64,000 bases of DNA from Sediminibacterium ginsengisoli (GTDB lineage: Bacteria; Bacteroidota; Bacteroidia; Chitinophagales; Chitinophagaceae). Shown here piece by piece: positions 14,805 through 23,928 of the stretch. Location: positions 1-64,000 of the forward strand of contig CAMBEQ010000001.1 in assembly GCA_945865545.1 (NCBI GenBank), given 5' to 3'. The notes below the pieces were generated by a model that had not been told where the DNA came from, made no database searches, and worked only from the letters and a program-made list of their open reading frames with translations. Each line of letters opens with the position of its first letter. Position 1 is the stretch's first letter. Made by a program: the position numbers and the translations under genes.

Positions 14805-14838
14805 AAAGCACAAACACTAAAATGTTTGTGCTTTTTTT
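14805..14838 (+). terminator. Rho-independent terminator
   Basis: A 12-bp perfect stem, 14805-14816 with 14823-14834, six-base loop, then T residues. Its presence shows that the downstream acylase cannot sensibly start at the ATG at 14822, within this structure. Confidence 0.92.
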
Positions 14839-14887
14839 ATGCTTAACTTTAAATAGTCAATTTTCCTACTTATTCAATTTAATTACT

Positions 14888-17080
14888 ATGAAAAATTATA
14901 CCATTGGTTTGTTTACTTTATTGCTATTGGCCTATTATAGCAATACTGCACAAGCTCAACAAATTAATACATCAGATATAGCCAGATGGAATAAGCACGC
15001 CAACCAAATTAAAATTATTAGAGATGAATGGGATATCCCACATATTTATGGCAAGACCGATGCCGACGCCATTTTTGGTTTAATGTACGCCCAATGCGAA
15101 GAAAATTTTACTCAAATAGAATTAAACTATTTAGAAATGTTGGGTCGTACTGCCGAAGTAGAAGGGGCTAAAGCTATTTACGATGATTTAATGATGCTTC
15201 TCATTCAAGACAGCGTAGCAGCCATAAAAGATTTTAACAATAGCCCTATTTGGTTTAAAAATTTACTACAAGCACATGCAGATGGTTTAAATTATTATTT
15301 ATATAAGCACCCCGAAGTACACCCAAAAGCCATTACCTATTTTAAGCCATGGTATCATTTGATGTGGACCGATGGAAGTGTTTCCCCCACAAGAGCTGGA
15401 GGCATCACCACTGAAATGGTGGCTAATTTTTATGGCGATAAAAATAAATTAGCCATTCAATCCCATACAAATTTTGAAGAAAAAATTAGTACGGGTTCCA
15501 ATGGATTTGCGATTGCACCAAAGCATAGTAAAAATGGAAATGCTTTGTTGTATATTAACCCTCATGTACCTTTTTATTTTAGATCTGAAATGCATATGAA
15601 TAGTGAAGAGGGCTTAAATGTGTACGGTGCAGTTACCTGGGGTCAAATGTTTATTTACCAAGGCTTTAATGAAAAATGTGGATGGATGCATACCAGCAGC
15701 TACGCAGATGTAGCAGATGTATATGAAGAAAAAATTAAACAAAATAAAACAGGCTGGGTATCTATCTATGAAAAAGAAGAAAAAAATATTACCCAAAGAA
15801 CCATTAATTTAAAATATACCGAAGCAGGCTTGATTCAATCAAAATCATTTCTTACTTATAAAACAATTCACGGGCCGGTGATGGGAAGTAAAAATGGTAA
15901 ATGGTTAAGCCTTCAAGAAAATAATCGTTCTTTAAATGCTTTAATGGAATGTTGGATTAGAACCAAAGCAAGCAATTTAAAATCTTATCAACAAGCATTG
16001 TCCTTATTAGCTAATAATAGCAATAACACTGTTTTTGCTGATAGAGAAGGCAATATTGCTTATTGGCATGGAAATTATATGCCTAAAAGAAATACCAATT
16101 ACGATTATAGTTTGCCTGTAGATGGATCAATAAAAAGTACCAATTGGAATGGCCTTCATGCACTCAATGAAATAGTACAAAGTATTAATCCGTCCAATGG
16201 TTGGTTACAAAATTGCAATGCCACTCCATTTACAGTGGCTGGATCCAATAGTCCTAATCCTCAAAATTATCCAGCTTATATGGCACCAGAGGGTGAAAAT
16301 GGCCGTGGTATTACGGCTGTTAAATTATTAGAAAAAATAGATAAAATAAGTATAGATGATTTAATTCATCTTGGATACAATAAACATATGTCGGCCTTTG
16401 ATGTTTTATTACCTTCTTTTTTAGACTATGTAAAAACTATTTCGCTCAATGAAAAAGAAAAGAAAGCCATTCAATATTTAAGCAACTGGAATCATGATGG
16501 CGATACGGCTTCCATTGCCACCACCATTGCTATTGAATGGGCTACCGAATGGAGTAAAGAATTACCGCCAGCCCCTACCGAAGAAATGAGTACCCATATT
16601 TGGAAAAAATATGAAAGAATGGTTACTGCTGTTTCCAATGAAAAAAAATTAGCCCTTTTAAATAAAACACTCACACAATTAGAAAAAATATATGGTAATT
16701 GGGAAATAAGCTGGGGCAGCATTAATAGATATCAGAGGGTTAACCCAGGAGAAAAGTTAGATGACCAATTACCTAGTTTAGCAGTGGGGCAAGCTTCTTC
16801 TAAATGGGGTACTCTCCCTGCCTTTGAAAGTAAAAGACAAGACAATAGCAACAAACGTTATGGCTATTCTGGAAATAGTTTTGTTGCAGCTATTAGTTTT
16901 GGTAAAAAGCTAGAAGCTAAATCGATCATCACTGGAGGACAAAGTCGTTTTGCCAATTCCACTCACTTTAGCAATCAAGCTCAAAAATACTTAGCTGGTG
17001 ATTTCAAAAATATTCACTTTTACAAAGAAGATGTTTTAGCACACGAGGTAATATCATATAAACCTGGATTCGATAGATAA
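14888..17080 (+). CDS. Penicillin acylase family Ntn-hydrolase (AHL/aculeacin acylase-like), paralog 1
   Basis: A 730-residue self-processing amidase of the penicillin acylase (S45) family. Start chosen at ATG 14888, directly before the signal peptide (about 1-24, ending AQAQ) and after the terminator. Layout is signal, alpha chain with IKIIRDEWDIPHIYGKTDADA, then the beta chain whose N-terminal nucleophile would be Ser204 in STGSNGFAIAPKHS. NPHVPF after it fits PvdQ- and aculeacin-acylase-like members that remove acyl chains from amides. Predicted periplasmic. The true substrate (acyl-homoserine lactone, acylated peptide, antibiotic) cannot be told. Its 3' end overlaps the converging LuxR-type gene by 61 bp. 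Confidence 0.92.
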   Translation: MKNYTIGLFTLLLLAYYSNTAQAQQINTSDIARWNKHANQIKIIRDEWDIPHIYGKTDADAIFGLMYAQCEENFTQIELNYLEMLGRTAEVEGAKAIYDDLMMLLIQDSVAAIKDFNNSPIWFKNLLQAHADGLNYYLYKHPEVHPKAITYFKPWYHLMWTDGSVSPTRAGGITTEMVANFYGDKNKLAIQSHTNFEEKISTGSNGFAIAPKHSKNGNALLYINPHVPFYFRSEMHMNSEEGLNVYGAVTWGQMFIYQGFNEKCGWMHTSSYADVADVYEEKIKQNKTGWVSIYEKEEKNITQRTINLKYTEAGLIQSKSFLTYKTIHGPVMGSKNGKWLSLQENNRSLNALMECWIRTKASNLKSYQQALSLLANNSNNTVFADREGNIAYWHGNYMPKRNTNYDYSLPVDGSIKSTNWNGLHALNEIVQSINPSNGWLQNCNATPFTVAGSNSPNPQNYPAYMAPEGENGRGITAVKLLEKIDKISIDDLIHLGYNKHMSAFDVLLPSFLDYVKTISLNEKEKKAIQYLSNWNHDGDTASIATTIAIEWATEWSKELPPAPTEEMSTHIWKKYERMVTAVSNEKKLALLNKTLTQLEKIYGNWEISWGSINRYQRVNPGEKLDDQLPSLAVGQASSKWGTLPAFESKRQDNSNKRYGYSGNSFVAAISFGKKLEAKSIITGGQSRFANSTHFSNQAQKYLAGDFKNIHFYKEDVLAHEVISYKPGFDR

Positions 17081-17739
17081 TGGTCATACAGCTTTGACAT
17101 AAAAGCCACTTTAACCAATCCAGCTAAATTTTTTACTTCTAATTGTTGCATCATTTTAGTGCGATGCCCTTCAATGGTTCTTTTACTATGGCCCACTTCA
17201 TAAGCAATTTGTTTACTAGAAGCTTCTTCACAAATACGAACCAAAATATACTTATCATAGGTATGCAGTTGATGCACTTTTTGGGTTAACTTAATTTTTT
17301 CCATATGATTGACCATGGAAAAAACCTTCTCTGCAATAATAGAACAGAAATATATTTTATTGAGTCGGGCCATTTCTAATGCCTTGGACCATTCTTGCTT
17401 AGATACATTTCTGGAGATGACAACAGAGATACCATTGTCAATGAGTTGATACAAATGAGCATCATCTTGCTCATTAAACACCACCATTATAGACATTTTT
17501 TTCTTTAAAGCACTTACTTGAACCATGGCATCAGAATGTCCATAATCAAATAGGGAGCTATCTACCACTAAAAGTAAGGGAAGGGCTTGTTGGTTTTTAT
17601 CCATGGCCATAAAGCCATCCAACTCTTGTAAGCTTTTAATGATATGATAGCCCATTAACATTGGATTGTCTTTAATAAGTAGGCCACAACCCATTGCATA
17701 CACAGTTTGTTGATCACATAAAATAACTTGACTTTGCAT
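17020..17739 (-). CDS. NarL/LuxR-type response regulator with a degenerate receiver
   Basis: A 239-residue regulator. The N-terminal half follows a response-regulator receiver (VILCDQQTVYA, then LPLLLVVD with D60 where the phospho-acceptor should be), but the conserved late lysine is replaced in VVISR. The C-terminal domain (about 157-215) is a LuxR-type helix-turn-helix with SSKQIAYEVGHSKRTIEGHRTKMMQQLEVKN. It has no autoinducer-binding domain. The last 20 or so residues, after the helix-turn-helix, are encoded inside the converging acylase gene. No histidine kinase is nearby. Target genes unknown; its own promoter region faces the ATP-grasp genes across a 261-bp gap. Confidence 0.88.
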   Translation of the reverse strand: MQSQVILCDQQTVYAMGCGLLIKDNPMLMGYHIIKSLQELDGFMAMDKNQQALPLLLVVDSSLFDYGHSDAMVQVSALKKKMSIMVVFNEQDDAHLYQLIDNGISVVISRNVSKQEWSKALEMARLNKIYFCSIIAEKVFSMVNHMEKIKLTQKVHQLHTYDKYILVRICEEASSKQIAYEVGHSKRTIEGHRTKMMQQLEVKNLAGLVKVAFMSKLYDHYLSNPGLYDITSCAKTSSL

Positions 17740-18000: not shown

Positions 18001-19119
18001 TTGACATCAATTCGTAACTTATTTCACCCTTTTGTTCCAGTAGGACATTTGAAAGTGTGGGTATTAGCCCCAGCCTTGGATAATCCAGATCCCAATTTGG
18101 CTTATTATTATGACTTTAGTCAAAGTATTGAAGAATATACACGCGTATTTGAACAATTAGATTTGCCTTGGAAATGGCAACCCGTTTCTTTAGAAACTTA
18201 TAAAATGATTGTTCAAGAAATTGCGCATGAAAGAGAAAAAGGAATTTATTTTCCAGTGGTTTTAAATTTATGTGATGGAGATGAAATTAATGGGGCCCCT
18301 GGCGTTTCCGTCATTAAAGCATTAGATGCAAAGCAATTGGTCTATACCGGGGCCAATGATTATTTTTACGATATCACTACTTCTAAAATTCCAATGAAAG
18401 AAGCTTTTGATATTGCTGGTGTTGCCACCCCAAAATGGGAAGCCATTAGAACCAACGATATAAATGCAAAAGAGTTACTTGAAAATTTAGGTTGCCCTGT
18501 TATTGTTAAGCCTGCGGTGTCGGGTGGGAGCTTGGGAGTGGGTATAAAAAATGTAGTAGAAACTCCAAAAGAATTAAAAGTACAATTAGCAAAAATGTTT
18601 GAGGGCTACAGAGGCTGGAACTTAGCATCAGATGGTATCCTAGCTGAATCATTTATAGAAGGACCAGAATATACCGTAATGATTGTGGGTAGTCATACGC
18701 ATCCAGAATTTGCAAAAATTTATCCCCCTATTGAAAGAGTATTTCATGCTTCCCTACCTGAAAAAGAAAAATTTTTATCGTTTGATCGCTTATGGGAAAT
18801 TTATGAGGAAGAAACACCTATGCCAGAAGAAGAGAATTTTTACCAATATCAATTAGGAGATGAAGCCGTTCAAATGGCTGTTCAAAAAATTTCTTGGGAT
18901 GCGTATGTGGCAGTAAATGGCACCGGCTATACTAGAGTGGATGTTCGCATTTGTAATAAAACAGGCATTCCCTATGTATTAGAAGTGAATGCGCAATGTG
19001 GAATCAGTGAAGACGAAAATTTTACTTCGATTGGTGCGATTCTAAAATACGCCAATCAAAGTTTCGCAGAATTAGTGATACATATTATTAACGACGCATT
19101 TGCAAGAAGAAAAAAATAA
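18001..19119 (+). CDS. ATP-grasp ligase, D-Ala-D-Ala ligase-like
   Basis: A 372-residue cytoplasmic ATP-grasp enzyme, which would join a carboxylate to an amine using ATP through an acyl-phosphate. An N-terminal alpha/beta domain (1-120) precedes the ATP-grasp fold: K170 in PVIVKPAVSGGSLGVG (nucleotide-binding lysine and glycine-rich loop 174-181), EGPEYTV (220-226), TRVDVR (311-316) and EVN (328-330). The usual D-Ala-D-Ala-ligase ending EVNTxPG is replaced by EVNAQCGIS, so the acceptor is probably not D-alanine. Start: TTG at 18001, because an in-frame stop lies six codons upstream and no ATG occurs near the N-terminal conserved part. The next gene begins 4 bp after the stop. Confidence 0.88.
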   Translation: MTSIRNLFHPFVPVGHLKVWVLAPALDNPDPNLAYYYDFSQSIEEYTRVFEQLDLPWKWQPVSLETYKMIVQEIAHEREKGIYFPVVLNLCDGDEINGAPGVSVIKALDAKQLVYTGANDYFYDITTSKIPMKEAFDIAGVATPKWEAIRTNDINAKELLENLGCPVIVKPAVSGGSLGVGIKNVVETPKELKVQLAKMFEGYRGWNLASDGILAESFIEGPEYTVMIVGSHTHPEFAKIYPPIERVFHASLPEKEKFLSFDRLWEIYEEETPMPEEENFYQYQLGDEAVQMAVQKISWDAYVAVNGTGYTRVDVRICNKTGIPYVLEVNAQCGISEDENFTSIGAILKYANQSFAELVIHIINDAFARRKK

Positions 19120-19123
19120 AATT

Positions 19124-20569
19124 ATGCGCCCGCTTCCCATACTGAATCATCCAGAAAGTTTCAAAGATTTAAAAGTTTGCATTCTTCAACCAGACTATTC
19201 CACTTCTGGAGTAGATTATCAATATTACGATCCCAAGAGAGACCTATCGGCTATTATGCCAGAAGCGCATATGGATCATGTTTTTTTAAATAAGCTCACT
19301 ACCTATCAACAGTTAAAAGAATTAAAGGATAAAAACTATGATATCTATATTAATCTATGTGAAGGTTATTTAGAATGGAAAGTACCTTCTATCGACGTTA
19401 TTATAAGCATGGATTTATTGGGATTGCCTTATACCGGGCCCAATGCGAACTTATACGACCCGCCAAAAACCATCATGAAATATTTGGCCTTTTGTGAAGA
19501 CGTGGTTACCCCAGCGCATGTGCTTATTGAGTCTTTGGAAGATTTAGATCAATTACCTGGAAATTTAAAATTTCCATTGTTTGTAAAACCTGCCAAAGCA
19601 GGAGATAGCCTAGGAGTGGATGACGCTTCTAAAGCAAACAATGTGGATGACTTAATAGTTAAGGTGAAGAATATTGTGGCCGAATTTGGTTCAGCCTTGG
19701 TAGAAGAATATATTGATGGGCGAGAGTTTACTGTATTAGTGTGTGGCAATGCCGATGGAAAAACATGTACCAGCTTTGTTCCAGTTGAATATATTTTCCC
19801 TGAAGGGTTCAGTTTTAAAACCTATGCTTTAAAAACTTCTGAATTACACCCTACAGCCAATATCCCTGTTACAGAAACCGCTCTAGCCAATAAATTAAAA
19901 AGTATTGCAGAGCAAGTTTTTATGTCTTTTAATGGAGTAGGTTATGGGAGAATGGATTTTAGAATGAATGACAAAGGAGAGATTTTCTTTTTAGAAATAA
20001 ATTTTACTTGTTCTGTTTTTTATGCACAAGGGTACGAAGGATCGGCCGATTATATTTTACTGCATGATGGCGCTGGTCAAAGAGGTTTTTTGGAAAGAAT
20101 AATTATTGAGGGAATGTCCAGGTACAGTAGAAAAGAAAAATTATTTACGATCAAAGGAAATGCCATTGCTGGTTATGGTATGTATGCAAAAAGAGATTTA
20201 CCTAAAAATACTTTATTATTTAAAGGGGAAGAAAAATCACAACGTATTGTTAGTAAAAAATTCGTTGATGAAAATTGGGATGAAAGAGAAAAATTAAATT
20301 TTAGAAGATACGCCTACCCTATTAGTTCAGAAGTTTATATATTATGGGATTTACAACCCGAAGAGTGGTCGCCACAAAATCATCATTGCGATGCCAACTG
20401 CACTTACAAAGGGTTGAACCTCTATGTCAATAGAGACATTAAAAAAGGGGAAGAACTTACTTTGGATTATGGCAGCTTCTTGGATGAAACCATGGAACCA
20501 TTTAATTGCCATTGTGGTGCTGCTCATTGCCGTGGACTTATAAAAGGTACTGCTAAAATTAAAGGCTAG
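19124..20569 (+). CDS. ATP-grasp ligase fused to a C-terminal SET methyltransferase domain
   Basis: A 481-residue two-domain protein. Residues about 1-335 are a D-Ala-D-Ala-ligase-like ATP-grasp enzyme: K155 in LFVKPAKAGDSLGVD, EEYIDGREFTV (194-204), RMDFR (276-280) and EIN (291-293). Residues about 340-481 are a SET domain: GNAIAGYGMYAKRDLPKN opening, NHHCDANC (419-426, the NHxC motif), GEELTLDYG (to 450) and a post-SET zinc-type cluster CHCGAAHC (462-469). So one polypeptide could form an amide bond and methylate an amine, probably lysine or an N-terminus. I use the ATG at 19124, 4 bp after the previous stop; a TTG at 19100 would overlap that gene. Both domains keep their key residues. Substrate unknown. 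Confidence 0.92.
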   Translation: MRPLPILNHPESFKDLKVCILQPDYSTSGVDYQYYDPKRDLSAIMPEAHMDHVFLNKLTTYQQLKELKDKNYDIYINLCEGYLEWKVPSIDVIISMDLLGLPYTGPNANLYDPPKTIMKYLAFCEDVVTPAHVLIESLEDLDQLPGNLKFPLFVKPAKAGDSLGVDDASKANNVDDLIVKVKNIVAEFGSALVEEYIDGREFTVLVCGNADGKTCTSFVPVEYIFPEGFSFKTYALKTSELHPTANIPVTETALANKLKSIAEQVFMSFNGVGYGRMDFRMNDKGEIFFLEINFTCSVFYAQGYEGSADYILLHDGAGQRGFLERIIIEGMSRYSRKEKLFTIKGNAIAGYGMYAKRDLPKNTLLFKGEEKSQRIVSKKFVDENWDEREKLNFRRYAYPISSEVYILWDLQPEEWSPQNHHCDANCTYKGLNLYVNRDIKKGEELTLDYGSFLDETMEPFNCHCGAAHCRGLIKGTAKIKG

Positions 20570-20663
20570 TGCGCTCTGTTTGAGTTACTTATTTTTGTAA
20601 ATACCTATTGTGTTTTATTTATTGTACATTTTCACGTAACTTAATTGCAACGATTATTTGCTT

Positions 20664-21371
20664 ATGGGTAAATTTCAACCTCCCGCTTTTATTGAACCCT
20701 TCTCTCCTTTTTGGTGGGAATGTATGCTAGTCGTTACCTTAATTATTGTTTTGGTAGTTAGGCTACCTCTGTATTTTAAAAAATTACAACATAAAAATTA
20801 TGCTTTGTTTTTAGCTATTTTTTTTATGGTAAGTTTTATTATTGAAAACTATTATAATTTTATAAATGGATTTTGGAATTTAAAACAACATTTGCCAGTT
20901 CACTTATGCAGCATTAGTTATTTTATGTGTGTTGCCTTATTGCTTAATTACAAACAGTGGTTGGCAGAATGCGTTTATTATTGGGGATTGGCCGGGGGCA
21001 TTCATGCTATGCTTACACCAGAATTTACCGTGGGGATGGAGGGGTATAATTTTTATGCTTATTTTATTGACCATGGAGGCCTCTTACTCGTGGTTGCCTA
21101 TATGATTATTCATTTAAATTTTCGCCCTCGCCCTAGATCTTGGATTTGGGTATTGGGCTATACCCAATTGGTGGCTATAGGTGTTGGCATTGTGAATTAT
21201 AGTGTTGGGGCTAATTATATGTATTTATCTGAAAAACCCGAAGTCAATAATCCCTTTGTTATTGGAGAATGGCCTTATTATATTCTTATACTTGAAGCCG
21301 TTGCAGTATTTCATTTTTGGATATTCTATTTACCCTTTAATAAAAAGAATAAAGTTCTATCCAAGGCTTAA
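20664..21371 (+). CDS. TIGR02206/TMEM164-family integral membrane protein (YwaF-like)
   Basis: A membrane protein of about 235 residues with six or more transmembrane segments. The family marks LPVHLCSIS (77-85), YYWGLAGGIHAMLTPE (105-120), YFIDHGG (133-139) and GANYMYLSEKP identify TIGR02206, the bacterial relatives of TMEM164. Human TMEM164 has been reported as a cysteine acyltransferase acting on ether phospholipids; C82 and H137 here sit in the conserved segments, so a membrane acyl-transfer role is possible but not shown. Start at ATG 20664 rather than the TTG two codons earlier. It follows the ATP-grasp-SET gene by 94 bp on the same strand and its stop abuts that of the converging HAD gene. 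Confidence 0.86.
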   Translation: MGKFQPPAFIEPFSPFWWECMLVVTLIIVLVVRLPLYFKKLQHKNYALFLAIFFMVSFIIENYYNFINGFWNLKQHLPVHLCSISYFMCVALLLNYKQWLAECVYYWGLAGGIHAMLTPEFTVGMEGYNFYAYFIDHGGLLLVVAYMIIHLNFRPRPRSWIWVLGYTQLVAIGVGIVNYSVGANYMYLSEKPEVNNPFVIGEWPYYILILEAVAVFHFWIFYLPFNKKNKVLSKA

Positions 21372-21713: not shown

Positions 21714-21852
21714 TGTTATGTATTTTAAATGTATTTAACTGAGGCAAATTTAGATAGTTTCTATAAATTACAGCTTTCATTTTATCAAGAACTGAAATCA
21801 TCGTTAAAAACTGTGCTTCTTTCAATATTTGAACAAAATTAACCCTTACACC

Positions 21853-23928
21853 ATGAGATTATTTTTTTTATCCCTGTTTGTTGGTATCCTTCAATTGGCT
21901 TCTGCTCAAAACACGAATAACCCAATTATTAGAACAGATAAAATTACCATTGCACGTGATACTTATGGAGTACCACATATTTTCGCCCCCACCGACCCTG
22001 AAGTGGCTTATGGTTTAGCTTGGGCACATGCCGAGGACGATTTTACCACCATTCAAACACTGATGCTTACCGGTAAAGGTAAATTAGCCACTTATTTAGG
22101 TAAAAAGGGAGCACCTATAGATTATGTTGTGGGCTTACTCAATACCAAAGCTACCGTGATGGAGCAAATAGATCAATTGGACCCAGCTTTTTTACAATTG
22201 ATTAGAGGGTATTTGTTAGGTTTAGAAGCTTATGCAAATGCACATCCAAAAGATATACTTAATAAACATGTATTCCCTATTAGCATTGAAGAATATTTAT
22301 CGGCCAGCGTTTTCTCAGTAGCTGTATTTTGTGGTGTAGATAAAGCCTTGCCAAAAATTTTAAATGGTACCATTCCGGCTTTGCCTGGTTTTACAGGCGA
22401 AGGCAGTAACTCTATTGCAGTGCATTCCAGCAAATCGGCTTCTGGTGAAAATATGTTATTGATTAATGCGCATCAACCTATTGAAGGCGCTACCGCTTTT
22501 TATGAAGCACAATTACAAAGCGAAGAAGGATGGAATATTTTAGGAGGCTTGTTTCCAGGTGCCCCTTTAATATTTCATGGTGTCACCCCTAACTTGGCTT
22601 GGGCACATACAGTGAACTTACAAGATAAAATTGATGTCTATCAATTACAAACCGATAAGCTACATCCAGGGCAATATAAAGTGGATGGCGAATGGCTAAA
22701 GCTTGAAAAAAGAAAAATAAAATTAAGTATCAAGGGTATTCCGTTTCCTATTTATAAAACAGCTTATACTTCTATCTACGGACCTACCGCAGCTACCCCT
22801 AATGGTGAATACTTTTCAATGCGCTTGCCTTCCTTGATGGATATAGGTGCTTTACAGCAATGGTATGCGATGAATAAAGCGCAAAACTTTACTCAATTCA
22901 AAGCTGCTTTAACACAGAATCACCTCGCTATGTTTAATATTGTATATGCAGACAAAAGAGATACTATTTTTTATATCTCCAATGGAAAAATGCCCTATCG
23001 TAATACAGATACTAGTTATCATTGGAATGCTACCTTGCCAGGAAATACACGTGCAACCCTTTGGACTAAATTTAAACCTTTAAGCGAATTACCTCAATAC
23101 TTAAATCCAAAAAGCGGTTACTTATACAATACCAACCATTCTCCATTTTTAGCCACTGCCGAAAATGAAAATTTAAATCCAGCCAATTTTGACGCTTATG
23201 ATGGGTATGAATTAATCCATAACAACCGAAGTCGTCGTGCCAAAGATTTAATTGACCAATTAGATAAGTTTAGTTACGCCGATTTAAAACGCATCAAATT
23301 TGATCGTCAACTTCCTGCTAAAATTTTATACCCTTATGGATTTACCTCAGATACTTTATTTATGTTGGATGAAAATAAGTATCCGCAGCTAGCGCCACTT
23401 ATTGTAAGTTTAAAAAAATGGGACCATCAAGCCATTGCCGAAAGCAATGGAGCACTCATTTATAATTTAGCCTATTATTATATCCCTAAAATAATGGCGG
23501 ACCATAAGAATGAAAATTTGACTACCGCAGAAGCGGTGGCTACCTATGAATACATTTATCAATTCTTAATAAAAAATTACCAACGCCTAGATGTTACTTT
23601 AGGAGAAATGCAACGCTTGGTGAGAGGAGAGGAAAACTGGCCACAAAGCGGCATGCCCGATGTATTGGCCGCTGTACAAACTTCCCCTTTTGGTAAAGCA
23701 CAACGTAAAATGAATAGCGGTGATGCTTATATTGGATTTGTTCGCTTCCCTAAAGATGGAAGTCTACCGCTCATTGAAACGGTGAATACTTTTGGTGCGA
23801 GCTCCGTAAAAGGGAGTCCACATTATGCCGATCAAAGAGCCCTATATCAAGCACAAGAAGTAAAAAAAATGACTTTAGATAAAGAGGAAGTGTTAAGAAA
23901 GGCAGAACGCAGTTACCATCCTCAATAA
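21853..23928 (+). CDS. Penicillin acylase family Ntn-hydrolase, paralog 2
   Basis: A 691-residue S45 amidase, start at ATG 21853 just before the signal peptide (about 1-19, ending ASAQ). Alpha-chain start ITIARDTYGVPHIFAPTDPEVAYGLAWAHAEDD and beta-chain nucleophile Ser185 in EGSNSIAVHSSKS, followed by MLLINAHQPIEG, place it with acyl-amide acylases of the aculeacin/AHL type. It is a diverged relative of the gene at 14888-17080; the two flank the ATP-grasp, SET and TMEM164-like genes. Predicted periplasmic; substrate unknown. No terminator is visible between it and the converging dehydrogenase gene. Confidence 0.92.
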   Translation: MRLFFLSLFVGILQLASAQNTNNPIIRTDKITIARDTYGVPHIFAPTDPEVAYGLAWAHAEDDFTTIQTLMLTGKGKLATYLGKKGAPIDYVVGLLNTKATVMEQIDQLDPAFLQLIRGYLLGLEAYANAHPKDILNKHVFPISIEEYLSASVFSVAVFCGVDKALPKILNGTIPALPGFTGEGSNSIAVHSSKSASGENMLLINAHQPIEGATAFYEAQLQSEEGWNILGGLFPGAPLIFHGVTPNLAWAHTVNLQDKIDVYQLQTDKLHPGQYKVDGEWLKLEKRKIKLSIKGIPFPIYKTAYTSIYGPTAATPNGEYFSMRLPSLMDIGALQQWYAMNKAQNFTQFKAALTQNHLAMFNIVYADKRDTIFYISNGKMPYRNTDTSYHWNATLPGNTRATLWTKFKPLSELPQYLNPKSGYLYNTNHSPFLATAENENLNPANFDAYDGYELIHNNRSRRAKDLIDQLDKFSYADLKRIKFDRQLPAKILYPYGFTSDTLFMLDENKYPQLAPLIVSLKKWDHQAIAESNGALIYNLAYYYIPKIMADHKNENLTTAEAVATYEYIYQFLIKNYQRLDVTLGEMQRLVRGEENWPQSGMPDVLAAVQTSPFGKAQRKMNSGDAYIGFVRFPKDGSLPLIETVNTFGASSVKGSPHYADQRALYQAQEVKKMTLDKEEVLRKAERSYHPQ

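What the first reader, a model, noticed from the sequence alone, without database searches (positions are those of the whole stretch)
18001..21371. ATP-grasp ligase, ATP-grasp-SET fusion and TMEM164-like protein in one run: candidate undescribed amide-forming and methylating system
Two adjacent D-Ala-D-Ala-ligase-like enzymes, 4 bp apart, keep ATP-binding residues but not the D-Ala-D-Ala EVNTxPG ending. The second carries an intact SET domain (NHHCDANC, GEELTLDYG, CHCGAAHC) on the same chain. SET domains are uncommon in bacteria and mostly methylate protein lysines; fused to a peptide-type ligase it suggests making a methylated peptide or tag, or marking a protein by ligation and methylation. 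A TIGR02206 membrane protein with conserved Cys and His follows. Two acyl-amide hydrolases flank the run. The domains are seen; the joint pathway is inferred.
Basis: partly seen in the sequence, partly recalled or inferred. Interest (0 to 1): 0.8.

Follow-up and report, generated by a model that had tools for sequence, protein, structure and literature searches.

The report
Conserved ATP-grasp and SET methyltransferase cassette
A Bacteroidota bacterium carries two linked ligases, one fused to a methyltransferase, which recur with a second methyltransferase in many relatives and probably make a methylated small amide that is still unidentified.

Summary
At 18001-19119 lies a Ddl-like ATP-grasp ligase (AG); at 19124-20569 an ATP-grasp ligase fused to a SET domain with all canonical motifs (FUS). 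Both are under purifying selection. Neither is D-Ala-D-Ala ligase: both fall far below the curated cut-offs, branch outside the Ddl-type clade, and the genome has a separate Ddl.

The TMEM164-like gene and the penicillin amidases lie beside the pair only in close relatives (0 of 26 distant loci). The constant partner is a standalone SET protein: of 294 genomes of the family, FUS, AG and this SET occur in 84, 85 and 80, all three in 78, mostly ordered SET-AG-FUS. In the host genome it sits about 54 kb away, outside the window. An ABC-type membrane protein follows FUS in 16 of 44 loci. The solo SET's closest solved relative is BurB, which methylates free methionine.

Best reading: a carrier-free pathway that builds and methylates a small amide or peptide. 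Domains, co-occurrence and order are shown; substrates, product and export are inferred. My searches of the held literature found no bacterial ATP-grasp-SET fusion.

The parts
18001..19119 (+). AG: standalone Ddl-like ATP-grasp ligase, 372 aa
   Evidence: Pfam PF07478 61.3 bits; best NCBIfam Ddl model 90.4 bits against a cut-off of 243; AlphaFold2 model pLDDT 84.8, all 50 listed Foldseek hits D-Ala-D-Ala or D-Ala-D-Lac ligases; adjacent to FUS in 67 of 68 loci
18265..18285 (+). AG motif NLCDGDE, Cys where Ddl has His (HG)
   Evidence: N89, C91, D92, G93, D94, E95 invariant and L90 nearly so in 20 sequences; alignment with Ddl
18979..19002 (+). AG Mg/ATP motif LEVNAQCG in place of EVNTxPG
19124..20569 (+). 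FUS: ATP-grasp ligase fused to a C-terminal SET domain, 481 aa
   Evidence: Pfam PF07478 77.3 bits and PF00856 44.4 bits; model pLDDT 81.7; in 84 of 294 family genomes
19352..19366 (+). FUS motif NLCEG
   Evidence: N77, L78, C79, E80 invariant, G81 nearly so
19991..20014 (+). FUS Mg/ATP motif LEINFTCS
20171..20473 (+). SET domain as matched by PF00856 (with post-SET cysteines about 20144-20569)
   Evidence: E 2.4e-12; KMT2D and BurB are the best solved relatives
20378..20401 (+). SET motif NHHCDANC
   Evidence: N419, H420 and C422 invariant in 20 of 20
20447..20473 (+). SET motif GEELTLDYG with the motif Tyr
   Evidence: Y449 invariant in 20 of 20
20507..20530 (+). post-SET motif CHCGAAHC
   Evidence: C462, C464, C469 invariant in 20 of 20
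20658..21371 (+). TMEM164-like integral membrane protein; neighbour, probably not part of the system
   Evidence: TIGR02206 140.6 bits; beside the pair in 26 of 42 close and 0 of 26 distant loci
17020..17739 (-). divergent LuxR-type regulator; possible local regulator in close relatives
   Evidence: GerE 34 bits; 39 of 42 close, 3 of 26 distant loci

Best explanation
A ribosome- and carrier-independent biosynthetic cassette for a methylated small amide or short peptide. The two ATP-grasp enzymes each activate a carboxylate as an acyl phosphate and join it to an amine. The SET domain fused to the second ligase methylates a substrate or product of that ligase. The standalone BurB-like SET protein methylates a second position, most likely on a free amino acid used as building block. 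Where present, the ABC-type membrane protein exports the product. Shown: domains, intact motifs, purifying selection, separateness from Ddl, co-occurrence and gene order. Inferred: acyl-phosphate chemistry (known for the ATP-grasp family), small-molecule rather than protein substrate, order of steps, export. Unknown: the substrates and the product.
For: All three genes occur together in 78 of the 86 genomes (of 294 searched) that have any of them; AG lies within 300 nt before FUS in 78 of 84. In a genome of another family SET-AG and FUS sit on different contigs but all are present (G472). In nine genomes of a distant family the unit is SET-FUS with no separate AG; in the five of these loci that I read, an ORF of about 580-690 aa follows FUS, tested in one as an ABC exporter. 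An ABC transmembrane-only protein (PF13748 129.5 bits in the one tested) directly follows FUS in 16 of 44 loci. The solo-SET profile's best solved relative is BurB at 74.4 bits, the next 41.8; BurB S-methylates free Met (PMC12542666, abstract, part 1 of Results and passages read). AG and FUS branch together, apart from 14 Ddl-type sequences. Of the two other ATP-grasps in that tree, one is fused to a methyltransferase of unrelated fold and one lies in a diaminopropionate gene set. No small ORF (20-90 aa) within 2 kb of the cassette is shared by more than 4 of 44 loci, which argues against a ribosomal precursor.
Against: No substrate is known. Of the residues by which BurB contacts SAM, R42, A44, H72, R133 and H138 are not kept in the solo SET, only H93, which is general to SET domains, so methionine is not indicated; the SET tree joins solo SETs and BurB only at 83/67. 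The FUS SET matches KMT2D slightly better than BurB (43.4 against 40.3 bits). The host genome (92% complete) has no PF13748 match, so export is not supported there. Six of 84 FUS genomes lack the solo SET; three of these pass 90% completeness, though in one the contig begins just before AG. One genome has the solo SET alone (G768). Two distant genomes have FUS alone. The cassette is patchy: absent from 208 of 294 family genomes, two of the same genus among them. A precursor encoded elsewhere would be missed.
Confidence: 0.55

Rival explanations
1. A protein-marking system: the ligases add a residue or tag to a protein and the SET enzymes methylate lysines on it or on the tag.
For: SET domains are best known for protein lysine; the FUS SET scores best with KMT2D. 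Human TTLL12 combines SET-like and TTL-like (ATP-grasp-type) domains in one chain (PMC3520985, passages read).
Against: No gene other than the solo SET and the ABC-type protein was seen to recur with the cassette across distant loci; recurrent neighbours were clustered but not all annotated. The solo SET is nearest to a free-amino-acid methyltransferase. TTLL12 has the opposite domain order and is reported to lack critical residues in both domains. ABC-type partners suggest a transported product.
Confidence: 0.2
2. A RiPP (graspetide-like) maturation system acting on a ribosomal precursor peptide.
For: Graspetides are made by ATP-grasp ligases (PMC8939145, search listing only); exporters in such clusters are recalled, not looked up.
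Against: No small ORF shared by more than 4 of 44 loci near the cassette; the ligases are Ddl-like in sequence and fold.
Confidence: 0.07
3. Ddl paralogues that make an altered cell-wall dipeptide or depsipeptide.
For: Fold and Pfam match are Ddl-type.
Against: Neither the N-terminal Ddl loop, the HG motif nor EVNTxPG is kept; outside the Ddl-type clade, itself at 100/99 support; the SET partners would be unexplained.
Confidence: 0.08
4. A special case of the best reading: the solo SET makes S-methylmethionine and the ligases use it, giving a sulfonium peptide or osmolyte.
For: Nearest solved relative BurB makes S-methylmethionine (PMC12542666); a closer BurB relative sits among PKS genes in Eleftheria terrae and another beside a gene annotated as diaminopimelate decarboxylase in Sphingomonas.
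Against: BurB's SAM contacts R42, A44, H72, R133 and H138 are not conserved; the tree joins the two groups only at 83/67.
Confidence: 0.1

Closest known systems
D-alanine--D-alanine ligase (Ddl)
   Same: Same ATP-grasp fold and ATP/Mg residues; best structural and Pfam match.
   Different: Substrate-side motifs gone, far below curated cut-offs, separate clade, and a Ddl that passes its cut-off exists in the genome.
BurB / MSMT, SET-domain methionine S-methyltransferase
   Same: Best solved relative of the solo SET; shares T-x-Q-x5-H (S for T in the distant family), the HxC/PN region, the Tyr and post-SET cysteines.
   Different: BurB's SAM contacts other than H93 are not kept; the partners here are ATP-grasp ligases, where BurB works with BurI, BurD and BurE (PMC12542666, passage).
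Human TTLL12 (SET-like plus TTL-like)
   Same: One chain with a SET-type and an ATP-grasp-type domain.
   Different: Opposite order, eukaryotic, and reported inactive for histone methylation and tubulin tyrosination in vitro; here the motifs of both domains are intact.
Class I methyltransferase fused to Ddl-like ATP-grasp (L208:6839-8821, genome G075)
   Same: Methyltransferase and ATP-grasp with an NLC motif on one chain.
   Different: Unrelated methyltransferase fold at the N-terminus, no SET, other neighbours.
Stand-alone ATP-grasp ligases of small natural products (BacD, MysD, DdaF; recalled, not tested)
   Same: Proposed chemistry: carrier-free amide bond formation.
   Different: No SET methyltransferase in those pathways as far as I recall.

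Membership tests
D-alanine--D-alanine ligase | Curated NCBIfam cut-off reached | tested here: not met
   AG 90.4 against 243, FUS 77.2 against 245.65; the genome's own Ddl 343.6 against 310
D-alanine--D-alanine ligase | HG motif and EVNTxPG ending on the substrate side (role recalled) | tested here: not met
   NLC[DE]G and LEVNAQCG / LEINFTCS instead
D-alanine--D-alanine ligase | Branches with Ddl sequences | tested here: not met
   14 Ddl-type sequences one clade 100/99, AG plus FUS another 100/98 (long branches flagged; only the own Ddl checked with NCBIfam)
ATP-grasp carboxylate-amine ligase | Fold and ATP/Mg residues (GxxRxD, LE-x-N) | tested here: met
   R, D, E, N invariant in 20 AG and 20 FUS sequences; Ddl fold
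ATP-grasp carboxylate-amine ligase | ATP-dependent amide formation | not testable with these tools
   needs enzyme assay
SET-domain methyltransferase (FUS) | SET profile, GxG, NHxC, Tyr, post-SET CxCx4C | tested here: met
SET-domain methyltransferase (FUS) | Methylates protein lysine | not testable with these tools
   best solved relatives are mixed, KMT2D 43.4 and BurB 40.3 bits
BurB-type methionine S-methyltransferase (solo SET) | Closest solved relative by sequence is BurB | tested here: met
   74.4 bits, next 41.8
BurB-type methionine S-methyltransferase (solo SET) | SAM-contact residues R42, A44, H72, H93, R133, H138 | tested here: not met
   only H93 kept in 12 of 12
BurB-type methionine S-methyltransferase (solo SET) | One clade with BurB | tested here: inconclusive
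   83/67 support
Graspetide / RiPP cluster | Conserved precursor peptide gene nearby | tested here: not met
   no small ORF within 2 kb shared by more than 4 of 44 loci
Anti-phage defence system | Match to a PADLOC model | tested here: not met
   five proteins scanned, one marginal hit at E 0.0076

The most novel reading that the evidence does not exclude
An undescribed class of natural-product pathway in which SET domains serve as small-molecule methyltransferases coupled to, and once fused with, Ddl-related ATP-grasp ligases, making a methylated amide or peptide; all three genes are in 78 of 294 sampled genomes of this family.
Probability: 0.4. Interest if true: 0.85.

Novelty: new variant of a known kind. 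Interest (0 to 1): 0.62.

Why it matters
If right, it adds a further and more widely spread case to BurB of SET domains acting on small molecules rather than on histones or other proteins, and names a compact, testable three-gene pathway for an unknown metabolite in Bacteroidota. It also warns against annotating such SET proteins as protein-lysine methyltransferases and such ligases as Ddl.

Tried and rejected
TMEM164-like gene, penicillin amidases, LuxR regulator, TIM-barrel and HAD-like neighbours as system members: rejected as synteny of close relatives (a few LuxR and TIM genes, 3 of 26 each, in distant loci). Ordinary Ddl: rejected. RiPP: no shared precursor nearby. Defence: no PADLOC match of weight. 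Viral origin: 64 pattern hits in viral contigs, none a relative. Plasmids: no match for FUS, one weak ATP-grasp hit for the distant FUS, six records for the solo SET. The SET half was not compared with the PDB by fold on its own. In one search one row (Ddl_L079) was read on the wrong strand and is ignored; it was re-read before the tree. In one search the two other SET genes of the genome were not found by my pattern; one search added them, and their branches are too long to place. The Fisher tests treat related genomes as independent and are not used as evidence.

Literature: searches asked for ligase and SET terms together; one gave one paper (TTLL12), the others none. Searches were broader and only partly listed (20 of 40, 15 of 323, 15 of 20 papers), with no such system seen in the listings. 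Searches concerned BurB and TMEM164. The library holds only openly licensed papers; a 2009 amidoligase survey that I recall as a likely place is not held.
Full report
Observation. The window lies in a 2.26 Mb draft genome of 66 contigs, 92% complete. AG (18001-19119) and FUS (19124-20569) are both real, on the same strand and 4 bp apart. FUS carries a Ddl-type ATP-grasp region and a SET domain. In 20 aligned sequences, the window's included, the ATP/Mg residues (R276, D278, E291, N293) and the SET residues (G350, G352, N419, H420, C422, Y449, C462, C464, C469) of FUS are invariant; AG keeps R312, D314, E328, N330. AG, the ligase half and the SET half are all under purifying selection, pN/pS 0.07-0.25 against eight close loci (AG in six of the eight; synonymous sites near saturation).

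Not Ddl. Both proteins score far below Ddl cut-offs. The genome has a separate Ddl with LEVNTVPG that passes its equivalog cut-off, 343.6 against 310. Alignment shows NLC[DE]G where Ddl has HG, and a changed ending. A tree of 39 sequences puts 14 Ddl-type sequences in one clade (100/99) and AG plus FUS in another (100/98); two other ATP-grasps included, a Thioflavicoccus plasmid protein in a diaminopropionate gene set and a protein fused to a class I methyltransferase, fall on the side of AG and FUS. The program flags long branches. Predicted structures (pLDDT 81.7 and 84.8) match D-Ala-D-Ala or D-Ala-D-Lac ligases in all 50 listed hits each; the SET half has lower confidence and was not searched alone.

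What travels with it. One scan of species genomes with the single window protein, which finds close relatives only, gave 70 loci, all titled as Bacteroidota members or as unnamed bacteria except one titled Gemmatimonadetes. Of the 68 loci compared (two fragments left out) AG precedes FUS in 67; the exception is near a contig edge. TMEM164-like genes occur in 26 of 42 loci at 76% identity or more and in 0 of 26 below that; penicillin amidases in 39 of 42 and 0 of 26. These are local synteny. In distant loci a solo SET protein of about 165 aa stands before AG; by clustering it was seen in 11 of 26 distant loci, some of them cut short.

Counts across genomes. In 294 genomes drawn evenly from the family, FUS is in 84 (E at most 1e-60), AG in 85 (1e-60), solo SET in 80 (1e-20); all three in 78, any in 86. 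AG is within 300 nt before FUS in 78 of 84, 0.5-1.7 kb away in four and on another contig in two. The solo SET is within 300 nt before AG in 69 of the 79 genomes with both, on another contig in seven and elsewhere in three, including this genome, where it lies at contig position 74687-75199 on the other strand. Six FUS genomes lack it. Each of the three occurs in 37 of 101 genera, so the pattern is not one lineage, but genomes are not independent. In a phylum sample FUS is in 17 of 395 genomes. Of the 12 outside the family, nine of one family have FUS plus solo SET with no separate AG; one has SET-AG and FUS apart; two have FUS only.

Membrane partner. An ABC transmembrane-only protein directly follows FUS in 16 of 44 loci read (Pfam tested on one). 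In five distant loci an ORF of about 580-690 aa stands between FUS and a further short SET, tested in one as an ABC exporter with ATPase. This genome has no PF13748 match.

The SET parts. A tree separates FUS SETs from solo SETs and the rest at 97/97, apart from one long-branched row; solo SETs of the distant family fall among those of this one. The solo-SET profile matches BurB at 74.4 bits, next best 41.8. BurB S-methylates free methionine; its homologue MSMT works in Streptomyces mobaraensis (PMC12542666: abstract, part 1 of Results and passages read). Q75 and H81 of BurB are kept in all 17 solo SETs compared and T73 in 12 (S in the other five); R42, A44, H72, R133 and H138 are not kept. 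So a small-molecule substrate is plausible and methionine is not indicated.

Reading. Two ligases, two methyltransferases, an ABC-type partner in about a third of loci and no shared precursor peptide nearby fit a carrier-free route to a methylated amide or short peptide. Protein marking stays open, as the FUS SET is about equally near to KMT2D and BurB. The only chain with SET-like and ATP-grasp-type domains met in the papers is human TTLL12, in the opposite order and reported inactive in vitro for both activities (PMC3520985, passages read). A review of bacterial SET proteins has no occurrence of 'ligase', 'ATP' or 'Bacteroid' in its main text (PMC3980110, word search only).

Noticed in passing
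L208:6839-8821 (-) (genome G075 C33): A 660-aa protein joins a class I SAM methyltransferase to a Ddl-like ATP-grasp with an NLC motif: an independent fusion of the same two kinds of activity.
   Followed up: partly
L206:6899-7420: An Eleftheria terrae plasmid carries a close BurB relative among PKS, dioxygenase, aminotransferase and aldehyde dehydrogenase genes.
   Followed up: no
L205:6908-7429: A Sphingomonas paeninsulae plasmid has a BurB-like SET gene overlapping by 4 nt a gene annotated as diaminopimelate decarboxylase.
   Followed up: no
L127:5135-12099: A distant ATP-grasp-SET fusion stands near an N-formylglutamate amidohydrolase, a MATCAP-type peptidase and a gamma-glutamyltranspeptidase, all on the same strand.
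   Followed up: no
L130:11756-12112: A very short SET protein (118-120 aa) stands behind the exporter-sized ORF in five of five loci read of one distant family; it forms its own clade.
   Followed up: partly
window 14822-17080 and 21829-23928: Two penicillin-amidase-type hydrolases flank the pair in close relatives only.
   Followed up: yes
L001 and L003: Two further SET genes of other kinds occur in the same genome; their place in the SET tree is unsure.
   Followed up: no
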